From an uncultured Pedobacter sp. (GTDB taxonomy: Bacteria > Bacteroidota > Bacteroidia > Sphingobacteriales > Sphingobacteriaceae), in the NCBI RefSeq assembly GCF_946479715.1, contig NZ_CAMLHF010000155.1, positions 1 to 13,601 on the forward strand: a stretch of 13,601 bases of DNA, written 5' to 3'. Shown here piece after piece: positions 2,858-13,601 of this stretch; position 1 is the first letter of the stretch, and each line of letters opens with the position of its first letter. The position numbers were made by a program, and so were the translations under genes. The notes under the pieces were generated by a model, which saw only the letters and a program-made list of their open reading frames with translations, was not told the DNA's origin and made no database searches.

Positions 2858-3805
2858 ATGTCTAACAGAAAAATAAGTTTTGTGTCAAGTATGCTGTTGC
2901 TCACTGCAACGGCATGCTTTGCGCAATCTTCTGGTCCGCAAACGGTGAATCTCCCTCCGGGAGCCTCTTTAAAGTTGCGGGCAAATTCTGTTAACGCATC
3001 AACCTATCAATGGCTTAAAGACAATCAAATTGTAAGTGGTGCTATTGGTCAGGAATTTACAGTATTTGTTTCTGGAACATACACTGTGATATCTTATAAC
3101 ACCGAAGGCTGTGCTTCTGATATTTCAGAAGCTGTCATCGTTGTAGGTGGCTCCCCTCCTGTTATTCTCAAAGCTGATATGATGGTTACTAAAACATCAG
3201 AAAACAGGGCTTTAACACTCAACGACTCATTCGATTACACCATTAACGTAAAAAACAATGGGGTAGATAAGGCAACCAACATTAGGGTTACAGACGAACT
3301 ACCTCCCGAGGTTGAATTTCAACAACTAACACCTACTGCCGGCAGTAATGCAAGGTATAGCTTTGCAACCAGGACAGTACTTTGGGAAATTGATAGTCTG
3401 CAAAATGGCGAATCAGCTGATTTAAGGATAAAAACAAAAGCCCTTAAAGCCGGTGTTATTTACAACACAGCCAAAGTTTCGGCTGATCAGGCTGACCCGA
3501 ATCTGGCTAATAACGTTTCCACAGCCAGTACTTCGGTAGCAGGTATTATTATTCCTAACGTATTTACGCCAAACGGAGATAATAAGAACGAAACCTTTGA
3601 AATACCAGGCGTACAAGCGTTTGAAAATGAAATCACCATCCTAAACAGATGGGGAGGAACTGTATACTTCAAAAAAGGCTACAATAATGAATGGACCGGA
3701 CGAGGGCTTAATGAAGGTACTTATTTCTATGTACTAAGACTAAAAATAGGCACTAAATGGGAAATCTATAAAGGTTATATCACTTTATTAAGGGGCAAAC
3801 AATGA
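2858..3805 (+). CDS. Secreted Ig-like/DUF11 protein with gliding-motility C-terminal (T9SS type B) domain
   Basis: A 315-residue exported protein. Residues 1-22 are a signal peptide ([14 protein letters not shown]). Residues ~25-97 are an Ig-like domain ([33 protein letters not shown]). Residues ~104-225 match the DUF11 beta-sandwich repeat ([45 protein letters not shown]). Residues ~229-315 are the gliding-motility-associated C-terminal domain (CHU_C, type B T9SS sorting signal). Its hallmark motifs are present: [42 protein letters not shown] and YKGYITLLR. In this family the domain targets proteins through T9SS to the cell surface, usually with a PorP/SprF partner encoded beside it. That partner follows here with a 4-nt ATGA overlap (3802-3805), suggesting translational coupling. 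The extracellular role is inferred. Confidence 0.9.
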
Positions 3806-4791
3806 TGAAAAGAATCATACTTCTGTTTTTGGCATCTATTGGAATTGTGTGTAGCTCAAGTGCACAGCAAGACAGTCAGTTTACACAGTACATTTTCAAT
3901 ACAATCCATATTAATCCTGCTTATACAGGGTATAAAAAAGAGCTGTACATACAGGCTTTTTATCGCGCGCAATGGGTGGGCGTGAGAGGCGCACCAACAA
4001 CAGTTTCAGTAGCTGTAGATGGTGCTATTGACGATGGAAATGTTGGTCTTGGATTTATCGCTTCAAACGATAAGATTGGTGCTCAAAAAAACCTTTCTGC
4101 ATATGCAAACTATGCCTATAAAATCCAATTGGGTTATGATGAAAATTCAAGACTCTCTTTTGGTTTGGCCGCTGGTGTAATGCAACTTGGTCTTGATGGA
4201 GATAAATTAAATAGCATAGATCCCGATGACGAGGTTATCCCTACCGGAATGCAAACCAGATTTTTCCCTGATGCCAGAGCCGGTATTTACTATTCTAATG
4301 AAAAATATTTCGCCGGACTTTCGGCAAGTAACCTGATCGCAAGCTGGGCTGCAAAAAACTACAGCAATAACCTTCTTGTTCCTGTTCCGCAACCGCACAT
4401 ATTTTTAACTGCAGGGGCCTTAATACCCATTACTTATGGATGGGCTTTAAAACCGGTTATTTTATTAAAAGACGACATAAAGGGTCCTACTTCTCTGGAT
4501 GTTAATGCCTTCGTTCTACTTAATGAAAAGGTATGGATAGGAGGTTTTTACAGAACCACTGTACCTTTATACAACAAAAAATATCTCCAAAACGACCTTA
4601 CTAAAAAAAATGCATTGGGCATGATGTTCGAACTCTTTGCTACAGACAACCTAAGAGTCGGCTATTCTTACGACTATTCTTTAAACAAGCTCCAGTACTA
4701 CAACTATGGCAGTCATGAGTTTTCAGTAGGCATTTATTTAGGTCCCAGAAATATGAGAAAAATCAGATCATCCAGATGTTATGATTTTTAA
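3802..4791 (+). CDS. PorP/SprF family type IX secretion system outer-membrane protein
   Basis: A 329-residue protein with an N-terminal signal peptide ([22 protein letters not shown]) and the classic PorP/SprF opening right after it: [23 protein letters not shown], followed by [15 protein letters not shown]. The rest alternates polar and hydrophobic residues with frequent aromatics, as expected for an outer-membrane beta-barrel. Examples are [37 protein letters not shown] and [12 protein letters not shown]. It closes with the family-type [15 protein letters not shown] segment and a terminal aromatic (YDF). PorP/SprF proteins help deliver or anchor T9SS substrates with type B sorting domains. 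The gene overlaps the stop codon of such a substrate (ATGA), so this barrel is probably its dedicated partner. Length and motifs are complete. Which paralogue it is (PorP versus SprF) cannot be told from sequence alone. Confidence 0.93.
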
Positions 4792-4949: not shown

Positions 4950-6023
4950 ATGAAAACGAAACTTCCTCTTAAAAGCTTAATAAAAATAAGCTGCTGTTTT
5001 ACTACAGCGGTCAGTTTGTTTTTGCTTCTTTCTTCTTTTATTCAAGATGGGGAACTGTACTCATCTCTCGTAAAATGCTTGTTTTTTCAACTGCTGCTTA
5101 CGCTAATGTGCTTATCTAACATCCGTCTCCTGGTGGTTTTTGGGGATGAAAAATCGCCTCCAATAAGTAAAAGCAGCAAAAAGTTTTACCTGGCAAGTTT
5201 TGTGATGAGCGCGGTAATAATTATATGCATCTACTGGCTTGGCCAATACCTTACTTTTCGCGGTATTATAGAACAGCATGAACCATTTAGGGTTAGAGGC
5301 AATGTAATTTACCTGTACCTCAGTTTACAGGGATTCTTCATTAATGGTATTGTTTTGCTGCTCCAAAATTTCATTATTGTACAAGATTCTAATAACCAGG
5401 TGCAGTTGGAGAACTCACGTTTAATTGCAGCAAGGTCTCAGGCGGCTAATGAATTGTTACTTCAGCAAATACATCCGCATTTTCTGTTTAATGCGCTAAA
5501 CATATTAAAATCACTGATTAAAAGGAGTCCCGATAAAGCTGAGGATTATTTACTTCGCCTATCTGACTTCCTGCGTGTCTCCATATCGGGCAATAAAAGT
5601 GGAATAGCATCTCTGAATGATGAGCTGAAATTATGTGCAGATTATCTGGAGATGCAAAAAGTAAGGTTTGGTGAAGCCCTGAGCTTTAATTTAGACATAC
5701 AAGATCAAGAGAAAGAAAGTTCTGGACAAGTGCTTCCTATTTTTTCGCTACAGCCACTTCTGGAGAATGTGATTAAACACAATGAGCTTACGGATGCTGC
5801 TCCGCTCAACATAAATATCAAACAAAATGGCAACTGGATCAGCGTAACAAATAACATTCAACTTAAATCGAATCTGGAGCATTCTACTGGTAGCGGTCTG
5901 GCTAATCTTGCAGAAAGATATAACCTGTTATCTGGCGATGAGATCGACATCAGAGATGATGGACTTACCTTTTCCGTTAGCTTAAAAATATTAAAACATG
6001 AAGATTGTAATTATAGAAGATGA
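4950..6023 (+). CDS. LytS-type membrane sensor histidine kinase
   Basis: A 357-residue kinase of the His_kinase (PF06580) / LytS-YehU type. Four hydrophobic helices lie at about residues 14-32, 39-64, 80-102 and 119-144, with no sizeable extracellular sensor domain. A helical linker (~146-170) leads to the phosphoacceptor box LLQQIHPHFLFNALNILKSL, with His177 in PHFLFN the expected phosphorylation site. The L-SDFLRVSI and L-DELKLCADYLEMQKVRFG segments are family hallmarks. The ATPase part is compact: an N-box (PLLENVIKHNE, Asn273) and a Gly-rich box (STGSGLANLAERY, residues 312-324), with a reduced D-box (SVTNNI). The ATG at 4950 is preceded by no Shine-Dalgarno sequence, as is usual in Bacteroidota. 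Its 3' end overlaps the response regulator by 26 nt, so the two are coupled partners. The signal sensed is unknown. Confidence 0.93.
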   Translation: MKTKLPLKSLIKISCCFTTAVSLFLLLSSFIQDGELYSSLVKCLFFQLLLTLMCLSNIRLLVVFGDEKSPPISKSSKKFYLASFVMSAVIIICIYWLGQYLTFRGIIEQHEPFRVRGNVIYLYLSLQGFFINGIVLLLQNFIIVQDSNNQVQLENSRLIAARSQAANELLLQQIHPHFLFNALNILKSLIKRSPDKAEDYLLRLSDFLRVSISGNKSGIASLNDELKLCADYLEMQKVRFGEALSFNLDIQDQEKESSGQVLPIFSLQPLLENVIKHNELTDAAPLNINIKQNGNWISVTNNIQLKSNLEHSTGSGLANLAERYNLLSGDEIDIRDDGLTFSVSLKILKHEDCNYRR

Positions 6024-6759
6024 ACAAATAACGGCTGAGGATCTTGCTGATCTGATCATCAGATTACAACCTAATGCTCAAATTGTTGCAAGCTTAAGAT
6101 CGGTAAAAGAATCACTTCATTATTTTAGAACGCACGGCATGCCTGATCTTATCTTTAGCGATATTCAACTTGGCGATGGGTTAAGTTTTGACATATTTAA
6201 AGCTGTTGAGGTTACTGCTCCTATTATTTTTTGCACCGCTTACGATGAATATGCATTCAACGCTTTTCGCACAACCGGCATCGATTATATATTAAAACCA
6301 ATCGTTTCTTCAACAGTTGAACAAGCGCTAAAAAAATATCAAACCTTACGCAAAGAATTTACTACCTCGGCGGTTTCTTATGATTCTATTTTAGAGCTCT
6401 TTGCAAACAAGCCTGTGCAGAAAACATTTTCTATTTTAGTTACCCATAAAGACAAGATCATTCCTGTAAAAATGGAGCATATTGCTTTGTTTTATATTAA
6501 ACATGAAGAAACCTGCTTGTATACTTTTGACGATAAGACGTACGCGGTTAGTAAGAAAATGGAAGAGCTGGAACGTATTTGCGGCGATGATTTTTTTAGG
6601 GTAAACAGGCAGTGCCTGTTAAACAGAACGGCGGTTAAAGACGCGGCTCATTTTTTTTCCCGTAAGCTGGTTATAAACCTCTTAGTTCCGTTTAAGGAAA
6701 CCATCACCATAAGCAAGGAAAAAACACCTCAGTTTTTAGACTGGCTTGCCAGAAAATAA
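5998..6759 (+). CDS. LytTR-family DNA-binding response regulator
   Basis: A 253-residue response regulator. The receiver domain (1 to ~120) has the acidic pair Glu7/Asp8 (IVIIEDEQ), phosphoacceptor Asp55 (LIFSDIQLGDG), Thr80 (FCTAYDEYAF) and Lys100 (YILKPI), all in their conserved places. Residues ~143-250 form a LytTR DNA-binding domain, with ILVTHKDKIIPV, HIALFYIKHEETCLYTFDDK, the MEELERICGDDFFRVNRQCLLN segment typical of the family, and the closing FKETITISKEKTPQFLDWL. The protein is complete and no catalytic residue is missing. It is the expected phosphorylation partner of the overlapping LytS-like kinase. Its targets are unknown. Identical 13-nt sequences on both sides of the pair suggest autoregulation plus control of the small downstream gene, and the upstream T9SS-type cluster is another possible target; both are inferences. 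Confidence 0.95.
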   Translation: MKIVIIEDEQITAEDLADLIIRLQPNAQIVASLRSVKESLHYFRTHGMPDLIFSDIQLGDGLSFDIFKAVEVTAPIIFCTAYDEYAFNAFRTTGIDYILKPIVSSTVEQALKKYQTLRKEFTTSAVSYDSILELFANKPVQKTFSILVTHKDKIIPVKMEHIALFYIKHEETCLYTFDDKTYAVSKKMEELERICGDDFFRVNRQCLLNRTAVKDAAHFFSRKLVINLLVPFKETITISKEKTPQFLDWLARK

Positions 6760-6907: not shown

Positions 6908-7144
6908 ATGAACATAATTATTTTTAAAACCTCGGTACGGGACAAAAATGATCTTAGTACCATCAGACGTAAGATGGACAATCTGCTGGGCACAAAAAAC
7001 TGGACTTTTGCATTAGAGGATGAAGATAAAATCCTTAGAGTAGTTAGCGCTAGTTCTTATGTACCTGCCATCAGAAAGATATTAATGAAATATGGCTTTA
7101 TTTGCGAAGAATTGCCCTATTCTTTAGATGAGTTTAAAGTTTAG
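6908..7144 (+). CDS. Small HMA-like (ferredoxin-fold) protein lacking the CxxC motif
   Basis: A 78-residue protein starting at ATG 6908; a GTG directly before it at 6905 would add one residue and is less likely. The pattern fits a beta-alpha-beta-beta-alpha-beta fold like heavy-metal-associated domains: strand MNIIIFKTSV, helix KNDLSTIRRKMDNLLG, strand WTFALED, strand KILRVVSA, helix VPAIRKILMKYG, strand FICEEL. The metal-binding CxxC of true HMA domains is absent and there is one cysteine only (in FICEEL). Similar short CxxC-less proteins are, from memory, common in Bacteroidota, usually annotated as hypothetical or HMA-domain. It lies 148 nt after the response regulator, behind copy 2 of the 13-nt repeat, and its last 21 nt overlap the 3' end of the convergent Fic gene. 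The function is unknown. Confidence 0.75.
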   Translation: MNIIIFKTSVRDKNDLSTIRRKMDNLLGTKNWTFALEDEDKILRVVSASSYVPAIRKILMKYGFICEELPYSLDEFKV

Positions 7145-8236
7145 GTCATAATGCACACTACGCCCACTTCCGGCGGTTATTAAAATTTCTAAATCACTTA
7201 GTTCCTGCAAATCGCGTGTGGCTGTGGCTTTTGATGTTTTAGTAATTGAGATGTATTTTTTTGCTGTCATCCCTCCTTTAAATCCTTCGATACCTGCATC
7301 TAACATTTTGATGATCGCTTTCTGCTGACGGCTATTTAATTGTTCTTTATATTTATCAAAGAATCTGGTTTTCTGCAATGTAAAATTGACTAACGTTTTT
7401 GCTTTCCGTTGAGCTGTTAATGTTACTGAAACAAAATAGTTTATCCATTCGGAAATGTCATTACTTTGCTGGGCTTTTTTAAGAGCTGCATAATATGCAG
7501 CTCGATCTATCTCAATCGCTTCAGATAGACTAAGTAAAACCGGCCTTCCAAGGGTTTGAGAAAGTGCTTTCTCGGCAATTGCTCTTCCTATTCTCCCATT
7601 TCCATCTTCAAGTGGGTGTATTGATTCAAAATACAAATGGGCAATTGCAGATCTAACGGGCGCACTGTTAATTTCCCGAGAGCCTCCGGGAGCTGTTTGA
7701 TTAAACCATTCTATAAAATGCTCCATTTCTGCTGGTACCCGACTTGAAGGCGGGGCTTCAAAATGAACCGTTTCACTTCCAATTCTACCAGATATAACCT
7801 GCATTGGCTCGTCACCTTTTCGCCATGCTCCAATTCTTATTCTATTCGATGAACCCAACAAGGCTTTATGCCACTCCCATATTTTTTTTTGAGTAAGTGG
7901 TTCTTTAAATGAATTTCGAACATCAATCATAAGTTCACCAATGCCTGAAGCTCTTCTGTCGTGCACAACATCAGATGGAATATTAAGTCCAAGATTATTA
8001 CGAATGGAGGACATAACTTCCTGTCGGCTTAAAAACTCGCCTTCAATTTCAGAAGTCTTCACCGCTTCTGATATCATAATCTGCAACAATGCTTCTTGCT
8101 GAATGTCTGGTGGCAGAGTTTGTAATATGCCGTTCACTTCACCTGTTTCCAGTGTAAAGGCGTATAACATAGCCTCGCTTTTATTAAGCTGAATCTTAAA
8201 ATCTGGCCAATCTGGTAGTTCCCAATTATATTTCAT
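7124..8236 (-). CDS. Fic family protein (class II) with C-terminal winged helix
   Basis: A 370-residue Fic protein. Residues ~1-80 form the N-terminal domain common in this subfamily (opening YNWELPDWPDFKIQ) and carry the inhibitory motif TSEIEG (61-66), matching [S/T]xxxE[G/N] ahead of the Fic core, hence class II. The Fic core spans ~115-275, with a flap around ETVHFEAPP (155-163) and the catalytic loop HPLEDGNGRIGR (207-218). His207 and the nucleotide-binding Asn213, Gly214 and Arg215/Arg218 are all present. Active Fic enzymes usually transfer AMP from ATP to a target protein hydroxyl. Residues ~300-370 look like a winged helix-turn-helix (KKYISITKTSKATATRDLQELSDLEIL), so the protein may bind DNA. 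The start codon lies at the edge of perfect palindromes that also cover the promoter, pointing to autoregulation. Phe in HPFxDGN is Leu here, a common variant. The modified target is unknown. Confidence 0.93.
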   Translation of the reverse strand: MKYNWELPDWPDFKIQLNKSEAMLYAFTLETGEVNGILQTLPPDIQQEALLQIMISEAVKTSEIEGEFLSRQEVMSSIRNNLGLNIPSDVVHDRRASGIGELMIDVRNSFKEPLTQKKIWEWHKALLGSSNRIRIGAWRKGDEPMQVISGRIGSETVHFEAPPSSRVPAEMEHFIEWFNQTAPGGSREINSAPVRSAIAHLYFESIHPLEDGNGRIGRAIAEKALSQTLGRPVLLSLSEAIEIDRAAYYAALKKAQQSNDISEWINYFVSVTLTAQRKAKTLVNFTLQKTRFFDKYKEQLNSRQQKAIIKMLDAGIEGFKGGMTAKKYISITKTSKATATRDLQELSDLEILITAGSGRSVHYDLNFKLI

Positions 8237-8320
8237 GAGCCGATTATTTTTGCTAATCGGCTCAAATATAGTGAATTTATGAGCCGATTAGCAAAAATAA
8301 TCGGCTCATAAATTCACTAT
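8235..8320. promoter_or_regulatory. Nested perfect palindromes, probable operator of the Fic gene
   Basis: Two 27-bp inverted repeats lie here, each GAGCCGATTA and TAATCGGCTC separated by 7 nt: IR1 at 8237-8263 and IR2 at 8281-8307. IR1 is the exact reverse complement of IR2, and with AT on the flank this gives 29-nt arms at 8235-8263 and 8281-8309 around a 17-nt centre. IR2 extends into its own larger palindrome with perfect 23-nt arms (8268-8290 and 8298-8320). The Fic start codon touches IR1. The -33 element of the candidate Fic promoter falls in the spacer of IR2 and the -7 element abuts IR1. This layout fits repression by a dimeric winged-helix protein, probably Fic itself (inference). 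Confidence 0.7.
8263..8295 (-). promoter_or_regulatory. Bacteroidota-type promoter of the Fic gene
   Basis: On the minus strand, TATATTTG (8270 down to 8263) matches the Bacteroidota -7 consensus TAnnTTTG exactly. TTTG (8295 down to 8292) matches the -33 element, with a 21-nt spacer inside the usual range. Transcription would start near 8257, inside IR1, giving a leader of about 20 nt before the ATG at 8236. No other good match lies between the Fic start and 8340. Confidence 0.55.
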
Positions 8321-8382: not shown

Positions 8383-9510
8383 GTGAAATCAGAAAAAAAA
8401 GACATAATTATAGTTGGTGGTGGCTTAGCTGGGTTAACCTGTGCAATACATTTGCTAAAGTCAGGATTTGATGTTACGCTTATAGAAAAAAACCATTACC
8501 CGCAGCATAAGGTTTGCGGCGAATACATTTCAAATGAAGTACTCCCCTATTTGAAATGGCTTGATGTTGATCCGGCCCAGCTTAATCCCACAGAAATTAT
8601 CCGGTTATCTATTTCTTCTGCCAGTGGCAAAACAGTAAACACAGAATTGCCTCTTGGCGGTTTTGGAATCAGCCGGTTTGCACTTGATCATTTTCTTTAC
8701 GAAAAAGCATTGCAAAATGGCTGCATCTTCATAAATGATACTGTAAACGCTATTGATTTCAATGATGATGTATTTAGCATTAGTACGGCGAAAACTGGTT
8801 TGCTTAATGCAAAAATAGTAATAGGTGCTTTTGGAAAAAGATCATCGTTAGATCAAAAAATGGAACGGCGATTTATTCAAAAAAAATCTCCATGGCTTGC
8901 AGTAAAAGCACACTACAAGGGTGATTTTCAGGATGATCTGGTTGCACTTCATAATTTTAAAGGAGGGTATTGTGGGGTTTCTAAAGTGGAAAAGGACCGT
9001 ATCAACATCTGTTACCTTACAGATTACCAAAGCTTTAAAGCACACAAGAACATTACTGATTTTCAAAAACAGGTACTTTATAAAAACCCTCATCTAAAAG
9101 AGGTATTTGAAAACTGCATTCCATTGTTTGATCAGCCACTAACAATAAGTCAGATTTCTTTCGAAAAAAAGGAACCTGTTTACAATCATATTTTAATGGT
9201 TGGGGATACCGCAGGATTAATCCATCCTTTGTGTGGAAACGGAATGGCAATGGCCATTCATAGTGCCAAGATTTGTGCAGAATTAAGCATTCAATTTTTG
9301 AATGGCAGTATCTCATCAAGAATAATATTAGAAGAAAAATACCACAAAGAGTGGGACCTGAATTTCAAAAATAGACTGGCCGTGGGGAAACTCTTGTCTG
9401 GGATTATAAGAAAAGAAAAACTGTTTGCTCCATTATTAAATCTATTGATTAAATTCCCTTTTATATTGCCCAAAATCATTAAAAAGACTCACGGAAAACC
9501 AATAATTTAA
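8383..9510 (+). CDS. FAD-dependent oxidoreductase (geranylgeranyl reductase / UbiH-like hydroxylase family)
   Basis: A 375-residue flavoprotein. The start is GTG at 8383: an in-frame stop at 8359 blocks longer forms, no upstream ATG exists, and the Rossmann strand begins by residue 8. The FAD-binding motif is IIIVGGGLAGLTCAIHLL (GxGxxG at 12-17), with the ribose-binding acid Glu35 at the end of strand 2 (VTLIEKN). KVCGEYIS (~residues 44-51) is the signature loop of the geranylgeranyl-reductase-like branch. The second FAD motif is VGDTAGLIHPLCGNGMAMAI (from residue 273). No transmembrane helix is obvious, although the C-terminus (FAPLLNLLIKFPFILPKII) is hydrophobic and may touch the membrane. 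It heads an operon with a methyltransferase (directly adjoining) and a type III polyketide synthase, so hydroxylation or oxidation of a polyketide phenol is the likely role, comparable to SrsC. Reduction of double bonds is an alternative. Confidence 0.88.
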   Translation: MKSEKKDIIIVGGGLAGLTCAIHLLKSGFDVTLIEKNHYPQHKVCGEYISNEVLPYLKWLDVDPAQLNPTEIIRLSISSASGKTVNTELPLGGFGISRFALDHFLYEKALQNGCIFINDTVNAIDFNDDVFSISTAKTGLLNAKIVIGAFGKRSSLDQKMERRFIQKKSPWLAVKAHYKGDFQDDLVALHNFKGGYCGVSKVEKDRINICYLTDYQSFKAHKNITDFQKQVLYKNPHLKEVFENCIPLFDQPLTISQISFEKKEPVYNHILMVGDTAGLIHPLCGNGMAMAIHSAKICAELSIQFLNGSISSRIILEEKYHKEWDLNFKNRLAVGKLLSGIIRKEKLFAPLLNLLIKFPFILPKIIKKTHGKPII

Positions 9511-10257
9511 ATGCTTGTAAACACCAGTCGAAGAAGCGAAGCACCTGAAATAATGGATAATTTCTCTATGGAAGGAGAAATACTAAAGGACGCTTTAGAC
9601 AAAATTGCAAGCATAAACAGGTTGCTGGGCGGGAACAAAGTGACCTTGCAGGGCGTAACAACCTTAATAAAAAACAGTGGGGCTTTTAGCAATAATACTT
9701 CGAAAGAGATTAGCATTTTAGATGTAGGTTGTGGAAATGGCGATATGCTGAGAACCCTTGCCAACTATGCTGCTAAAAACAATTTAAAGTTTAAACTAAT
9801 TGGAATTGATGCCAACAATTATACCATTGGCCATGCACAGCAGTTATCTAAAAACTACCCAAACATTAGTTACATATGTACAGATATTTTCAATGAAATT
9901 GAACAACAAAGCACTTACGATGTTATCCTTTGTACATTAACCCTTCACCATTTCAAAGACACGGAAATACTGACACTGATGAACGGTTTTAGAAATCAGG
10001 CAGAGATGGGTATTGTGGTTAACGATTTACATAGAAGTGCTGTTGCTTATTACCTGTTTTTGGCGATATGCTTTGTTTTCAGGCTCAATAAAATGTCTAA
10101 AGATGATGGATTGGTTTCGATACTTAGGGGTTTTAAAAAGGCTGAATTGCTATCCTATTCCAGTGAACTGGATTTTAAAAAATATACGGTAAAATGGAAA
10201 TGGGCATTTCGCTATCAATGGATAATTCCTACTTCAATTAATAAAAATCATGTATGA
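9511..10257 (+). CDS. Class I SAM-dependent methyltransferase
   Basis: A 248-residue methyltransferase. Motif I is ISILDVGCGNGDMLRTLA (DVGCGNGD at 71-78), followed by the acidic strand end LIGIDANN that binds the SAM ribose, a CTDIFNE segment, and motif IV-like YDVILCTLTLHHF. The N-terminal ~50 residues (RRSEAPEIMDNFSMEGEILK, SINRLLGGNKVTLQGV) form a helical cap; from memory, this cap is typical of methyltransferases next to type III polyketide synthases in Bacteroidota. A hydrophobic stretch VAYYLFLAICFVFRL (~residues 176-190) could be a lipid-substrate lid. The ATG follows the upstream stop codon with no gap, and the TGA overlaps the polyketide synthase ATG (ATGA, 10254-10257), so coupling is tight. 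The probable role is O- or C-methylation of the polyketide product; the position is unknown. Confidence 0.9.
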   Translation: MLVNTSRRSEAPEIMDNFSMEGEILKDALDKIASINRLLGGNKVTLQGVTTLIKNSGAFSNNTSKEISILDVGCGNGDMLRTLANYAAKNNLKFKLIGIDANNYTIGHAQQLSKNYPNISYICTDIFNEIEQQSTYDVILCTLTLHHFKDTEILTLMNGFRNQAEMGIVVNDLHRSAVAYYLFLAICFVFRLNKMSKDDGLVSILRGFKKAELLSYSSELDFKKYTVKWKWAFRYQWIIPTSINKNHV

Positions 10258-11306
10258 GCGTAAAGATCAAAACCATTGCTAAGCTGCTACCCCGGTATTC
10301 AAGAAAAACTGAAGAAATTATACCTTTTTTAGATTCATGGTTAAGCGGACAAGATGAGCGTTTCATTAGAAAAGTAAAAAAGATATTTGAAAATGCAGGG
10401 GTTGATCAGCGCTATTCGATCATGTCGCCCGAAGAAGTATTTAGCGATCTGACTTTTGAAGAAAGGAACAATATTTATCTAAGAGAGGGCATAAACCTTG
10501 CTACGGAATGCCTAAAAAAAGCCTTAGAAAAAGCGGCATGGTTGCCTGAAGATCTGGATTATATAATTACTGTGAGCTGCACGGGTATTATGATTCCTTC
10601 GTTAGATGCCTACCTTATCAATACCTTAAATTTGAAACAAGATATAGTTCGATTACCTGTTACAGAAATGGGTTGTGCGGCTGGTGTTTCGGGTGTGATA
10701 TATGCCGATAATTTTTTGAAAGCTAATCCGGGGAAAAGAGCAGCTGTAGTTGCATATGAATCGCCTACAGCTACATTTCAGGTAAATGATTTTTCTATGG
10801 CCAACATTGTTAGTGCCGCAATTTTTGGGGATGGTGTGGCTTGTGCATTGGTTTCATCTCATCCTGATGATGAGGGCCCGGAAATTATAGCGAATGAAAT
10901 GTATCACTTTTACAATGCAGAACAAATGATGGGTTTTAAACTGGTAAACAGTGGTTTGCAAATGGTTTTGGATGTTGCAGTGCCAGATACAATAGAAAGC
11001 CATTTCCCTGATATTATTCATCCGTTTTTAGCGAAACACAATTTAACAATAAATGATATTGATCATCTGATCTTTCATCCGGGAGGAAAAAAAATTGTAC
11101 AGCTTGTTGATGACTTATTTGGTAAATTAGGTAAGAATATAGAAGATACTAAAGCGGTTTTAAGATTGTTTGGAAATATGTCGAGCGCCACGGTTATGTA
11201 TGTTTTAGAACGCTTTATGGAGGGTGAGCAAAAGGCCGGAGATTTGGGACTGATGTTAAGCTTTGGCCCGGGGTTTTCTGCGCAAAGAATATTGTTGAAA
11301 TGGTGA
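10254..11306 (+). CDS. Type III polyketide synthase (chalcone/stilbene synthase family)
   Basis: A 350-residue homodimer-type condensing enzyme of normal family length. The catalytic triad is intact: Cys141 in VTEMGCAAGVSG, His275 in LIFHPGGKK and Asn308 in LFGNMSSATVMY. The C-terminal loop LSFGPGFSAQRILL matches the conserved GFGPG strand. DQRYSIMSPE and VSCTGIMIPSLDAYLIN are further family hallmarks. The enzyme uses an acyl-CoA or acyl-ACP starter and malonyl units to make an aromatic or pyrone product without a carrier domain of its own. The genes after it supply an ACP, ketosynthase and dehydratase, so an ACP-bound fatty acyl starter and an alkylresorcinol or alkylpyrone product are likely (inference). 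A plant-like chalcone product is unlikely, as no phenylpropanoid genes are present. Folding mode (aldol versus lactone) cannot be read from the motifs. It overlaps the methyltransferase stop codon by 4 nt. Confidence 0.95.
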   Translation: MSVKIKTIAKLLPRYSRKTEEIIPFLDSWLSGQDERFIRKVKKIFENAGVDQRYSIMSPEEVFSDLTFEERNNIYLREGINLATECLKKALEKAAWLPEDLDYIITVSCTGIMIPSLDAYLINTLNLKQDIVRLPVTEMGCAAGVSGVIYADNFLKANPGKRAAVVAYESPTATFQVNDFSMANIVSAAIFGDGVACALVSSHPDDEGPEIIANEMYHFYNAEQMMGFKLVNSGLQMVLDVAVPDTIESHFPDIIHPFLAKHNLTINDIDHLIFHPGGKKIVQLVDDLFGKLGKNIEDTKAVLRLFGNMSSATVMYVLERFMEGEQKAGDLGLMLSFGPGFSAQRILLKW

Positions 11307-11322
11307 TTTAAAGTTAGTTTTG
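11292..11322 (+). promoter_or_regulatory. Possible internal promoter before the dehydratase gene
   Basis: TAGTTTTG (11315-11322) matches TAnnTTTG. A TTG at 11292-11294 lies 20 nt upstream, and a second at 11295-11297 lies 17 nt upstream. Transcription would start near 11330, before the long palindrome. One such match is not rare by chance in AT-rich DNA, so this is weak. Confidence 0.22.
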
Positions 11323-11349
11323 TTGAATGTAGTTGTGGTTTCTGCACGC

Positions 11350-11429
11350 TCGTCATCTCGAACGCAGAGAGAGATCTCTTGTTCAGGATTACGATTTCAA
11401 GAGATCTCTCTCTGCGTTCGAGATGACGA
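11350..11429. repeat. Long perfect palindrome (dispersed-type hairpin element) inside the operon
   Basis: Perfect 32-nt inverted arms (11350-11381 and 11398-11429) flank a 16-nt loop. The arms start with TCGTCATCTCGAACGCAG and end at the loop with GAGATCTCTTG. Similar sequences built on CGTCATCTCG...GAGATCTC are, from memory, dispersed intergenic repeats in Pedobacter-like genomes. It has no coding content and is not followed by a T-run on either strand, so it is not a standard terminator. It occupies over half of the 147-nt gap between the polyketide synthase and dehydratase genes. It may limit read-through or shape mRNA decay between the two halves of the operon. Confidence 0.85.
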
Positions 11430-11453
11430 AAATTAAAAAGATATAAACATAAC

Positions 11454-11900
11454 ATGAATAAAGAAGAAATTTTAGCCCACTTACCTTACTCCAAACCGTT
11501 TTTATTTGTAGATGAAATACTTCATATAGATGAAAATGGATCAAGCGGAACTTTCACATTTGATAAAGATCTTGACTTTTACAAAGGTCATTTTAAAGAT
11601 CATCCGGTAACACCAGGAGTAATTTTAACTGAAACCATGGCTCAAATTGGTTTGGTTTGTTTGGGTATATACCTTACAGGAAGTGCCGAAGGTGGTGTAC
11701 CGGGACATGTAATGCTAACTTCAACTGCTATTGATTTTATGAAACCGGTATTTCCGGGAGAAAAAGTAAAGGTTGTTGCAGAAAAAGTATACTTCCGCTT
11801 TAAAAAACTAAACTGCACTGTACAAATGCTAAATGAGCAGCATGAAGTGGTATGCAAAGGCACAATAGCCGGAATGGTAACTAATAAAATGAATGGATAA
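11454..11900 (+). CDS. FabZ-like 3-hydroxyacyl-ACP dehydratase
   Basis: A 148-residue single hotdog-fold protein, the usual FabZ length. It opens with the substrate-tunnel segment LPYSKPFLFVDEI. The catalytic pair is intact: His46 in YKGHFKDHPVTPGVIL and Glu60 in TETMAQIG, with the 14-residue spacing of E. coli FabZ (His54/Glu68). Further hallmarks are IDFMKPVFPGEKVKV and a C-terminal KGTIAGMV strand. The enzyme would remove water from 3-hydroxyacyl-ACP to give trans-2-enoyl-ACP. In this operon it probably serves a dedicated acyl-chain pathway rather than housekeeping lipid synthesis, because it overlaps the ketosynthase by 8 nt and is followed by its own ACP. No ketoreductase or enoyl reductase is encoded in the window, so these steps come from elsewhere or from genes past the right edge. 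Confidence 0.9.
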   Translation: MNKEEILAHLPYSKPFLFVDEILHIDENGSSGTFTFDKDLDFYKGHFKDHPVTPGVILTETMAQIGLVCLGIYLTGSAEGGVPGHVMLTSTAIDFMKPVFPGEKVKVVAEKVYFRFKKLNCTVQMLNEQHEVVCKGTIAGMVTNKMNG

Positions 11901-13167
11901 CAGAGTTGTTGTAACAGGATTAGGTGTTGTTGCCCCAAATGGAGTTGGCTTAACTGCATTTACGGATTCCATAAAAAATGGTACTTCGGGTATTAAACAC
12001 GATTCTCAGTTAGAACAACTGCAGTTTTCTTGTCAGATAGCTGGTAAACCTGAACTGTCTGATGATTTTATTGCACAATATTTTACCGCCTTAGAGTTAA
12101 GGAATTTTAACAGTACAGGCATCCTGTATGGCGTTATAGCCGGTATGGACGCCTGGAAAGATGCAGGTTTAACCATTACAGAAAGCGATGAACCTGATTG
12201 GGACAGTGGAACAATATTTGGAACCGGCACTTCGGGCATTGATAAGTTCAGAGAGTCTATCTATAAAGTTGATGATCTGCAGCTCAGGAAACTTGGCAGT
12301 ACCGTGGTGGTGCAAACCATGGCTAGCGGAATCAGCGCTTATCTTGGCGGTAAGCTTGGATTGGGAAATCAGACAACCACTAACTCATCGGCCTGCATTA
12401 CGGGTACAGAAAGCATTTTAATGGCCTATGAGCGTATTAAAACCGGACAGGCGACAAAGATGCTCGCTGGCAGCACAAGTGACAGCGGGCCTTATATATG
12501 GGCCGGATTTGATGCAATGAAAGTTTGCACTTACAAATACAATCCATTTCCGGAACAAGGATCAAGACCAATGAGTGCAAGTGCAAGTGGCTTTGTACCC
12601 GGTAGCGGCGCAGGAGCTATGGTTTTGGAATCACTAGATAGTGCCCTTAAACGGAGAGCAACAATTTATGGGGAAATACTGGGAGGCCATATCAACTCAG
12701 GCGGACAAAGGGGCACCGGAACAATGACAGCTCCAAATAGTATTGCTGTTCAGCGCTGCATAAAAGGAGCCTTACAAAATGCAGGCATTAAAGCCAGCGA
12801 AGTGGATGCCATTAACGGGCACCTTACAGCAACCTCTAAAGACGCTATAGAAATCCAAAACTGGAGTATTGCTTTGAATAGAAAAGGCTCTGATTTCCCT
12901 TATGTCAACTCTTTAAAATCTACAATTGGCCATTGCCTAAGTGCTGCCGGAAGCATAGAATGTGTAGCCTCAATCTTACAATTGCATCATAATTTTATAT
13001 TTCCGAATATCAATTGTGAAGATCCAAATCCAGAGATTAGCAATATGATAGATTTCAATAGAATTCCGCAACAATTATTGAACACAAGTGTTAATATTGT
13101 GGCTAAGGCAAGCTTTGGATTTGGCGATGTAAATGCTTGTATTATCTTAAAAAAATACGCTAAATAA
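11893..13167 (+). CDS. FabF-like beta-ketoacyl-ACP synthase
   Basis: A 424-residue thiolase-fold condensing enzyme of KAS II length. The active-site residues are present: nucleophile Cys168 (SSACITGTESI), His310 (INGHLTATSKDA), Lys342 and His347 (SLKSTIGHCLSAAGSIE). The glycine-rich GFGDVNACIILKK closes the fold. The first catalytic-His loop reads HLTATSKD where FabF has HGTSTPxxD, a difference seen in secondary-metabolism ketosynthases and one that could alter chain or ACP choice. It would condense malonyl-ACP with acyl-ACP to lengthen the starter chain. There is no adjacent chain-length-factor gene in the window. The start at ATG 11893 overlaps the dehydratase stop by 8 nt, and the ACP starts 2 nt after the stop codon, so it sits in one translation-coupled unit. 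Confidence 0.93.
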   Translation: MDNRVVVTGLGVVAPNGVGLTAFTDSIKNGTSGIKHDSQLEQLQFSCQIAGKPELSDDFIAQYFTALELRNFNSTGILYGVIAGMDAWKDAGLTITESDEPDWDSGTIFGTGTSGIDKFRESIYKVDDLQLRKLGSTVVVQTMASGISAYLGGKLGLGNQTTTNSSACITGTESILMAYERIKTGQATKMLAGSTSDSGPYIWAGFDAMKVCTYKYNPFPEQGSRPMSASASGFVPGSGAGAMVLESLDSALKRRATIYGEILGGHINSGGQRGTGTMTAPNSIAVQRCIKGALQNAGIKASEVDAINGHLTATSKDAIEIQNWSIALNRKGSDFPYVNSLKSTIGHCLSAAGSIECVASILQLHHNFIFPNINCEDPNPEISNMIDFNRIPQQLLNTSVNIVAKASFGFGDVNACIILKKYAK

Positions 13168-13169
13168 AT

Positions 13170-13424
13170 ATGGACAGAGCAGAATTAATAGCAAGGCTTA
13201 CGCCTATTATTGCTACCTATGCGCAAGATAAAGATGCCGTAGCCTCAATAAATGAAACCACTGATTTCATTAAAGATCTGAAGATTAATTCTGCAAACCT
13301 CGTTGATGTAATTTTAGATGTTGAAGAGGAATTTGATATCGAGATTGACAACCTATCGATGGAACGAATGTTGAATGTTAGCGCTGCCATGGAAATCATT
13401 GAGGATAAACTGAAAACAAAATGA
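13170..13424 (+). CDS. Acyl carrier protein
   Basis: An 84-residue, acidic, four-helix carrier protein. The phosphopantetheine site is Ser41 in DLKINSANLVDVILDVEEEF, where the usual DSL is NSA: Asp is replaced by Asn before the serine, and Leu by Ala after it. The following helix II (VDVILDVEEEFDIEI) is strongly typical of ACPs. It lies 2 nt after the ketosynthase and overlaps a phosphopantetheinyl transferase start (ATGA, 13421-13424). That transferase probably activates it by adding 4'-phosphopantetheine to Ser41. The altered site and the linked transferase suggest a specialised carrier separate from the housekeeping AcpP (inference). Confidence 0.92.
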   Translation: MDRAELIARLTPIIATYAQDKDAVASINETTDFIKDLKINSANLVDVILDVEEEFDIEIDNLSMERMLNVSAAMEIIEDKLKTK

Positions 13425-13601
13425 TAGGCAACGACATAGTAGATCTTGTACAGGCTGCAATAGATAGTAACTGGAAACGGAAGGGTTATCTGGATAAGAT
13501 CTTTAACACAGAAGAGCAATTTATGATCACCTCCGGTATTCATCCTTCTATGATCATATGGTTGCTATGGAGCATGAAAGAGTCTGCCTACAAAATATAT
13601 T
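13421..13601 (+). CDS. 4'-phosphopantetheinyl transferase (3' truncated by window end)
   Basis: The ATG at 13421 overlaps the ACP stop codon, and the frame is open to the window edge (60 codons visible). Two family motifs are readable: MIGNDIVDLVQA at the N-terminus, with the Mg-binding Asp of the GxDIV motif, and WLLWSMKESAYKIY near the edge, the W-x-KES-x-K motif with its metal-binding Glu. FNTEEQFMI between them fits the AcpS-like helix. The enzyme transfers phosphopantetheine from CoA to an ACP serine; the neighbouring ACP is the obvious substrate. The C-terminal part lies outside the window. Confidence 0.88.
   Translation, partial: MIGNDIVDLVQAAIDSNWKRKGYLDKIFNTEEQFMITSGIHPSMIIWLLWSMKESAYKIY

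What the first reader, a model, noticed from the sequence alone, without database searches (positions are those of the whole stretch)
8383..13601. Type III polyketide synthase operon with a built-in acyl-ACP starter pathway
Seen: a flavoprotein, methyltransferase, intact type III PKS, FabZ-like dehydratase, FabF-like ketosynthase, ACP and phosphopantetheinyl transferase, all on one strand with overlaps of 4-8 nt or gaps of 0-2 nt, apart from one 147-nt gap. Known: in Azotobacter, ArsB/ArsC take fatty acyl starters directly from a type I FAS encoded beside them. Inference: this operon is the type II counterpart, in which a private ketosynthase-dehydratase-ACP set makes an unusual acyl chain that is passed to the type III PKS to form an alkylresorcinol or alkylpyrone. 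I know of no named product for this arrangement.
Basis: partly seen in the sequence, partly recalled or inferred. Interest (0 to 1): 0.82.

Follow-up and report, generated by a model that had tools for sequence, protein, structure and literature searches.

The report
Lipid-ring operon with private fatty-acid cassette
A soil bacterium carries a tightly packed set of genes in which a ring-making enzyme is paired with its own small fatty-acid assembly line; the set recurs in many related bacteria and its product is not known.

Summary
Seven genes at 8383-13601 (FAD oxidoreductase, methyltransferase, type III PKS, FabZ-like dehydratase, FabF-like ketosynthase, ACP, PPTase) lie on one strand with junctions of -8 to +2 nt and one 147-nt gap. 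Of 80 relatives held, 68 keep all seven in order. In two genome samples the PKS ortholog and the close KS ortholog occur in the same 63 genomes, on one contig in 62.

Two things were not in the finding. First, 35 of 80 loci add a FabL-like enoyl-ACP reductase, absent here. Second, a homologous reductase-dehydratase-KS-ACP-PPTase cassette, with the same unusual N-S-A motif in the ACP, exists without this PKS in 23 genomes of a sister genus, and lies within 5 kb of the dialkylresorcinol synthase gene darB in 19 of them.

Ring type, chain length, saturation and the acyl handover itself are untested. Verdict: a widespread, apparently uncharacterised variant of known type III PKS phenolic-lipid operons.

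The parts
8383..9510 (+). FAD-dependent oxidoreductase (hydroxylase, reductase or halogenase fold class; likely ring tailoring)
   Evidence: PF01266 and TIGR02032 matches; model pLDDT 86, nearest folds FAD halogenases and aromatic hydroxylases at 15-20% identity; present in 78 of 80 loci
9511..10257 (+). class I SAM methyltransferase, likely ring methylation
   Evidence: PF13649; present in 80 of 80 loci
10254..11306 (+). type III polyketide synthase
   Evidence: PF00195, PF02797; C141/H275/N308 in 80 of 80; model pLDDT 88, nearest folds Pks11 and CylI
11350..11429 (.). perfect inverted repeat (32-nt arms, 16-nt loop) inside the 147-nt gap
   Evidence: function unknown, 0 exact matches of its arm pattern in G001
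11454..11900 (+). FabZ-like 3-hydroxyacyl-ACP dehydratase
   Evidence: PF07977; H46/E60 in 75 of 75; found in 63 of 63 carrier genomes
11893..13167 (+). FabF-like ketosynthase
   Evidence: PF00109/PF02801; C-H-H in 77 of 77
13170..13424 (+). acyl carrier protein with N-S-A around the modified serine
   Evidence: PF00550; N-S-A in 63 of 63 aligned relatives, full INSANLVD in 57 of 63
13421..13601 (+). 4'-phosphopantetheinyl transferase, cut by the window end (154 aa in L007)
   Evidence: PF01648; L007; PPTase seen in 70 of 80 loci

Best explanation
One operon makes a phenolic or pyrone lipid. The private ACP, activated by the co-encoded PPTase, carries an acyl chain that the FabF-like KS extends; a housekeeping ketoreductase, the FabZ-like dehydratase and, in the eight-gene version, a dedicated enoyl-ACP reductase process it. 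The acyl-ACP is handed to the type III PKS, which adds malonyl units and closes a ring; the methyltransferase and the FAD enzyme then tailor the ring, as in hid-type operons. Shown here: gene content, unchanged active sites, conserved order, co-occurrence, and use of a homologous cassette beside DarB. Inferred: ACP-bound starter and direction of transfer, use of housekeeping ketoreductase, role of MT and FAD enzyme, ring type.
For: Same order in 68 of 80 loci. PKS and close KS in the same 63 genomes, same contig in 62, at most 1.3 kb apart there. Distances of the six genes correlate at 0.65-0.89 over 67 operons. Homologous cassette within 5 kb of darB in 19 of 23 sister-genus genomes, with the same ACP motif in 6 of 6 read. 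Acyl-ACP starters are on record for ArsB/ArsC, germicidin synthase and CylI (PMC6274091 and PMC8086630, passages); CylI is among the nearest structures.
Against: Transfer was not tested. Planctomycete PKSs in operons with MT and FAD genes made alkylresorcinols in Corynebacterium, proposed from acyl-CoA (PMC10896814, passages), so a cassette is not needed in general. No ketoreductase in the operon. The halves can part: L047, L051 (divergent) and G298 (separate contigs). A cassette without the PKS exists. Correlated distances and co-occurrence are partly shared descent.
Confidence: 0.7

Rival explanations
1. Conjugate model: the PKS takes ordinary acyl-CoA or housekeeping acyl-ACP, and the cassette makes a second acyl or polyene chain that is later joined to the ring, as aryl polyene and dialkylresorcinol are joined in flexirubin.
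For: Flexirubin is such an ester of an aryl polyene with a dialkylresorcinol (PMC3992019, abstract). The window's set has KS, DH and ACP without ER, as expected for a polyene. The halves can be separate transcription units.
Against: No ligase, acyltransferase or aryl-starter gene was seen among the seven or eight conserved genes. ER in 35 of 80 loci does not fit a polyene there.
Confidence: 0.15
2. The cassette changes general membrane or envelope lipids and is only co-regulated with the PKS.
For: Related (ER-)DH-KS-ACP sets lie beside GNAT-like and glycosyltransferase genes in three distant genomes.
Against: In 251 family genomes the close KS ortholog (68% or more) was never found without the PKS ortholog; the cassette ACP and PPTase are separate from the housekeeping set only by inference.
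Confidence: 0.07
3. Reverse order: the PKS or its product primes the cassette KS, so that the chain is grown on an aromatic starter.
For: Not excluded by gene content.
Against: The homologous cassette also accompanies DarB, named a DAR cyclase in PMC3949708 (passages), with no type III PKS ortholog in those 23 genomes; no enzyme to load an aromatic acid was seen.
Confidence: 0.03

Closest known systems
hidABC (cyanobacteria) and the MT-FAD oxidoreductase-type III PKS operon of Planctomycetota
   Same: Same three enzyme kinds in one operon; products are methylated alkylresorcinols (PMC8086630, PMC10896814, passages)
   Different: Gene order differs (here FAD-MT-PKS); no KS, DH, ACP, PPTase or ER reported in the passages seen; sequences of HidA/B/C were not compared with the window
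Type III PKS + methyltransferase + hydroxylase/oxidoreductase operons of Streptomyces griseus and Mycobacterium smegmatis (srs, pkq)
   Same: PKS with a methyltransferase and an oxidase, giving alkyl benzoquinones (PMC9927152, passages; the name srs is recalled)
   Different: No private fatty-acid cassette reported in the passages; sequences not compared
Azotobacter ars operon
   Same: A fatty-acid synthase beside type III PKSs that take its ACP-bound chains (PMC6274091, passages)
   Different: The ars FAS is type I (as the finding says; recalled); here the set is discrete type II proteins
Cylindrocyclophane pathway (CylI)
   Same: ACP-bound ketide chain passed to a type III PKS that makes an alkylresorcinol (PMC8086630, passages); CylI is among the nearest structures
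   Different: Chain is made by a free ACP plus type I PKSs; identity to CylI only about 26%
DarB-linked cassette in the sister genus g3 (L086-L091)
   Same: Homologous ER-DH-KS-ACP-PPT, KS 52-56% identical, ACP with INSANLVD
   Different: Ring synthase is DarB, not a type III PKS
'T3pks-arylpolyene' cluster of an Aequorivita strain
   Same: Possibly this very family: Aequorivita loci L052 and L074 here hold the operon
   Different: One sentence with data not shown, PKS 69% identical to a Zobellia one (PMC6139392, passages); no gene list or product; not compared with my loci

Membership tests
Type III polyketide synthases | Chalcone/stilbene synthase domains with Cys-His-Asn | tested here: met
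   PF00195 and PF02797 above cutoff; C141/H275/N308
Type III polyketide synthases | CoA (or ACP) starter extended with malonyl-CoA and cyclised | not testable with these tools
   needs enzyme assay
hid/srs/pkq-type phenolic-lipid operons | PKS in one operon with a methyltransferase and a flavin or other oxidoreductase | tested here: met
   FAD gene 78 of 80, MT 80 of 80 loci
hid/srs/pkq-type phenolic-lipid operons | sequence orthology of PKS, MT and oxidoreductase to the characterised ones | not tested
   their sequences were not fetched
hid/srs/pkq-type phenolic-lipid operons | resorcinol or quinone product | not testable with these tools
   no chemistry; the Trp281/Gly284 position was not mapped
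ars-type FAS-fed PKS | type I FAS encoded beside the PKS | tested here: not met
   discrete type II-like KS, DH, ACP
Flexirubin / aryl polyene clusters | aryl starter enzymes, several KSs, ligases, DarA/DarB | tested here: not met
   one KS and none of the others in the window; no DarB at E 1e-50 in the nearest genome G001
Flavin-dependent halogenases (for the FAD enzyme) | WxWxIP motif (recalled) | tested here: not met
   absent, although halogenases are the nearest folds
FabL/FabI-type enoyl-ACP reductases (extra gene of other loci) | SDR fold with Tyr-X6-Lys (spacing recalled) | tested here: met
   34 of 34; FabL is the best NCBIfam model in 4 of 4 scanned, below cutoff

The most novel reading that the evidence does not exclude
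The optional enoyl reductase is a natural switch of product class. Operons without it, as in this window (48 of 85 labelled operons on the PKS tree, with at least six changes on that tree, two of them forced by well-supported branches), leave the chain unsaturated, or hand the KS product over as beta-ketoacyl-ACP in the manner of CylI, and so make polyenyl or keto-alkyl resorcinols or pyrones, while operons with it make saturated ones. The N-S-A carrier protein with its cassette would then be a portable starter-supply module shared by two unrelated ring synthases, type III PKS and DarB.
Probability: 0.25. Interest if true: 0.78.

Novelty: new variant of a known kind. Interest (0 to 1): 0.6.

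Why it matters
Type III PKSs are usually described as taking free acyl-CoA from the cell; here one is tied, across several families of Bacteroidota, to its own carrier protein and elongation enzymes, and a homologous cassette accompanies a different ring synthase. If transfer is shown, this is a tractable type II to type III handover system, a carrier-protein signature for mining, and a natural experiment on saturation (with and without enoyl reductase). Type III PKS clusters are also common but chemically unexplained in this phylum: one survey assigned 9% of the clusters predicted in its Flavobacteriaceae to this class (PMC7440613, passages).

Tried and rejected
Resorcinol or pyrone from the Trp281/Gly284 position: I looked for ArsC by a PDB search with a remote PKS (L104); ArsC was not among the five alignments shown, and the residue was not mapped. 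Left open.

FAD enzyme as a halogenase: nearest folds include PltA, PltM and Mpy16, but WxWxIP is missing and identities are 15-20%; hydroxylase or reductase stays possible. A protein search scored only the 8000 best candidates and returned generic names.

Plasmid location: no match to the PKS in the plasmid collection at E 1e-60.

The 147-nt gap as a hidden gene: the only listed ORF of 60 aa or more across it is antisense. It holds a perfect palindrome, whose arm pattern has 0 exact matches in G001, so it is not shown to be a dispersed repeat.

Myxobacterial alkylpyrone cluster as closest relative: passages of PMC12224551 gave no gene list to compare. PMC9248904 and, for Bacteroidetes, PMC8086630 and PMC10896814 were searched for terms with none found.

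Trees were quick-method trees; the KS tree carries a warning that long branches meet among L092-L094.

Literature: ten searches listed no paper that I recognised as describing this gene set with a product; I opened passages of eleven papers only, and the library lacks most subscription journals.
Full report
WHAT IS THERE. The window is from a Pedobacter near P. panaciterrae: its PKS is 96% identical to that of strain LMG 23400 (L006), and the nearest held genome is G001. Pfam and NCBIfam give FAD oxidoreductase, methyltransferase, type III PKS, FabZ-like dehydratase, FabF-like ketosynthase, ACP and PPTase. The PPTase is cut by the window end; in L007 it has 154 aa and is followed by ORFs of 292 and 684 aa on the other strand (not scanned), which ends the operon.

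A CONSERVED UNIT. A scan of genome contigs with the PKS gave 122 relatives, of which the best 80 are held (L006-L085); the other 42 were not seen. With profiles built from these loci, 43 have FAD-MT-PKS-DH-KS-ACP-PPT and 25 the same plus one gene between PKS and DH: 68 of 80. The other 12: L050, L052, L073, L074 lack only a recognised PPTase; L079 lacks ACP and PPTase; L017, L042, L069 and L082 are incomplete on short or cut contigs; L047 and L051 (Dyadobacter) have PPT-ACP-KS-DH-ER divergent from MT-PKS and no FAD gene in the 21 kb held; L049 (P. insulae) has only FAD-MT-PKS. In G298, whose PKS is identical to that of L049, DH-KS-ACP-PPT lies on another contig. The profiles come from the same loci, so this describes the set and is no independent test. 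Median junctions: FAD-MT 0, MT-PKS -4, PKS-DH +25 (or PKS-ER -7, ER-DH +3), DH-KS -8, KS-ACP -4, ACP-PPT -4 nt (starts are the most upstream possible ones).

CO-OCCURRENCE. Phylum sample, 198 genomes: PKS at 64-95% identity in 16, all other hits at 37% or less; KS at 61-96% in the same 16, then 54% and 48-50% in four genomes without the close PKS. Family sample, 251 genomes: PKS at 65-95% in 50, KS at 68-96% in the same 50, and KS at 52-56% in 23 genomes of genus g3 without the PKS ortholog. Three genomes are in both samples, so 63 carriers; PKS and KS are on one contig in 62, at most 1329 nt apart, the exception being G298. The dehydratase is found in 63 of 63. Four rows carry one stop inside the matched range (KS in G085; DH in G085, G143, G298); I did not check whether these lie only at gene ends. 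Relatedness inflates all these counts.

THE EXTRA GENE. 35 of 80 loci have a short-chain dehydrogenase of about 265 aa. FabL is its best NCBIfam model in four of four members scanned, below cutoff; the best PDB matches of one member are enoyl-ACP reductases; Tyr-X6-Lys is present in 34 of 34 (its meaning is recalled). Of 63 carrier genomes six have it, all in the operon; elsewhere in the set only matches of 31-33% were found at E 1e-25. On the PKS tree the label needs six changes against about 28 for shuffled labels; well-supported branches force two. The window lacks it.

THE CASSETTE ELSEWHERE. In six g3 genomes fetched of 23 (L086-L091), ER-DH-KS-ACP-PPT is present without the PKS. In L086 the divergent neighbours include DarB (635 bits, cutoff 550), DarG and DarH above cutoff, and an ABC-transporter ATPase; the ORF where darA would be matched no family. 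DarB is in 23 of 23 g3 genomes and within 5 kb of the cassette KS in 19; not in G335, G338, G353 and G362. The six g3 ACPs read carry INSANLVD; among 63 PKS-linked ACPs aligned, N-S-A is in 63 and the full INSANLVD in 57; the alignment holds 63 of the 74 loci with an ACP. Canonical ACPs have D-S-L there (recalled). PKS-linked and other cassette KSs lie on two sides of one branch (support 99). Three distant genomes have (ER-)DH-KS-ACP with other ACP motifs; in the one whose neighbours I scanned (L092) these are a GNAT-like and a GT2 glycosyltransferase gene.

HOW IT PROBABLY WORKS. KS, DH and, where present, ER build a chain on the private ACP with a housekeeping ketoreductase; the PKS takes it and closes a ring; MT and FAD enzyme tailor it. 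The strongest evidence is that one kind of cassette accompanies two different ring synthases; DarB is annotated as DAR cyclase and DarA as aromatase in PMC3949708 (passages). Acyl-ACP starters have precedent in ArsB/ArsC and germicidin synthase (PMC6274091, passages) and CylI (PMC8086630, passages). Pks11 and CylI are the nearest structures to the PKS model, and PDB titles show CylI with beta-ketoacyl, acyl and resorcinol ligands, so a beta-ketoacyl handover is conceivable here.

AGAINST. Planctomycete PKSs from operons with MT and FAD genes made alkylresorcinols in Corynebacterium, proposed from acyl-CoA (PMC10896814, passages). No ketoreductase is encoded. The halves can part. The conjugate model is not excluded. 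Distance correlations of 0.65-0.89 over 67 operons do not remove shared ancestry.

KNOWN OR NEW. Each part is known, and the three-gene core resembles hid-, srs- and pkq-type operons by gene content. The nearest mention of the whole that I saw is one sentence on a 'T3pks-arylpolyene' cluster in Aequorivita, data not shown (PMC6139392, passages). Ten searches gave no product (see Tried and rejected). I rate it a new variant of a known kind.

Noticed in passing
window 8232-8320: Two overlapping inverted repeats (38-nt arms 92% and 23-nt arms 100% complementary) between the divergent Fic/DUF4172 gene (7124-8236, - strand) and the operon start; possibly an operator or terminator.
   Followed up: partly
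window 11350-11429: Perfect palindrome with 32-nt arms filling most of the 147-nt gap between PKS and dehydratase; no exact match of its arm pattern in the nearest genome.
   Followed up: partly
L047, L051: Dyadobacter carries a rearranged, divergent version with ER and without a FAD gene nearby, and both its PKS and KS fall among Pedobacter sequences on the quick trees, which suggests transfer between families.
   Followed up: partly
L092, L093, L094: A more distant (ER-)DH-KS-ACP set without the PKS; in L092 beside a GNAT-like and a GT2 glycosyltransferase gene, the others look alike by eye.
   Followed up: partly
L105:3251-4865: A remote type III PKS followed by an ICMT-family methyltransferase gene, a different two-gene arrangement in the same phylum sample.
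   Followed up: no
window 2858-4791: A type IX secretion sorting-domain protein next to a PorP/SprF family gene.
   Followed up: no
window 4950-6759: Overlapping histidine kinase and LytTR response regulator genes; relation to the operon unknown.
   Followed up: no
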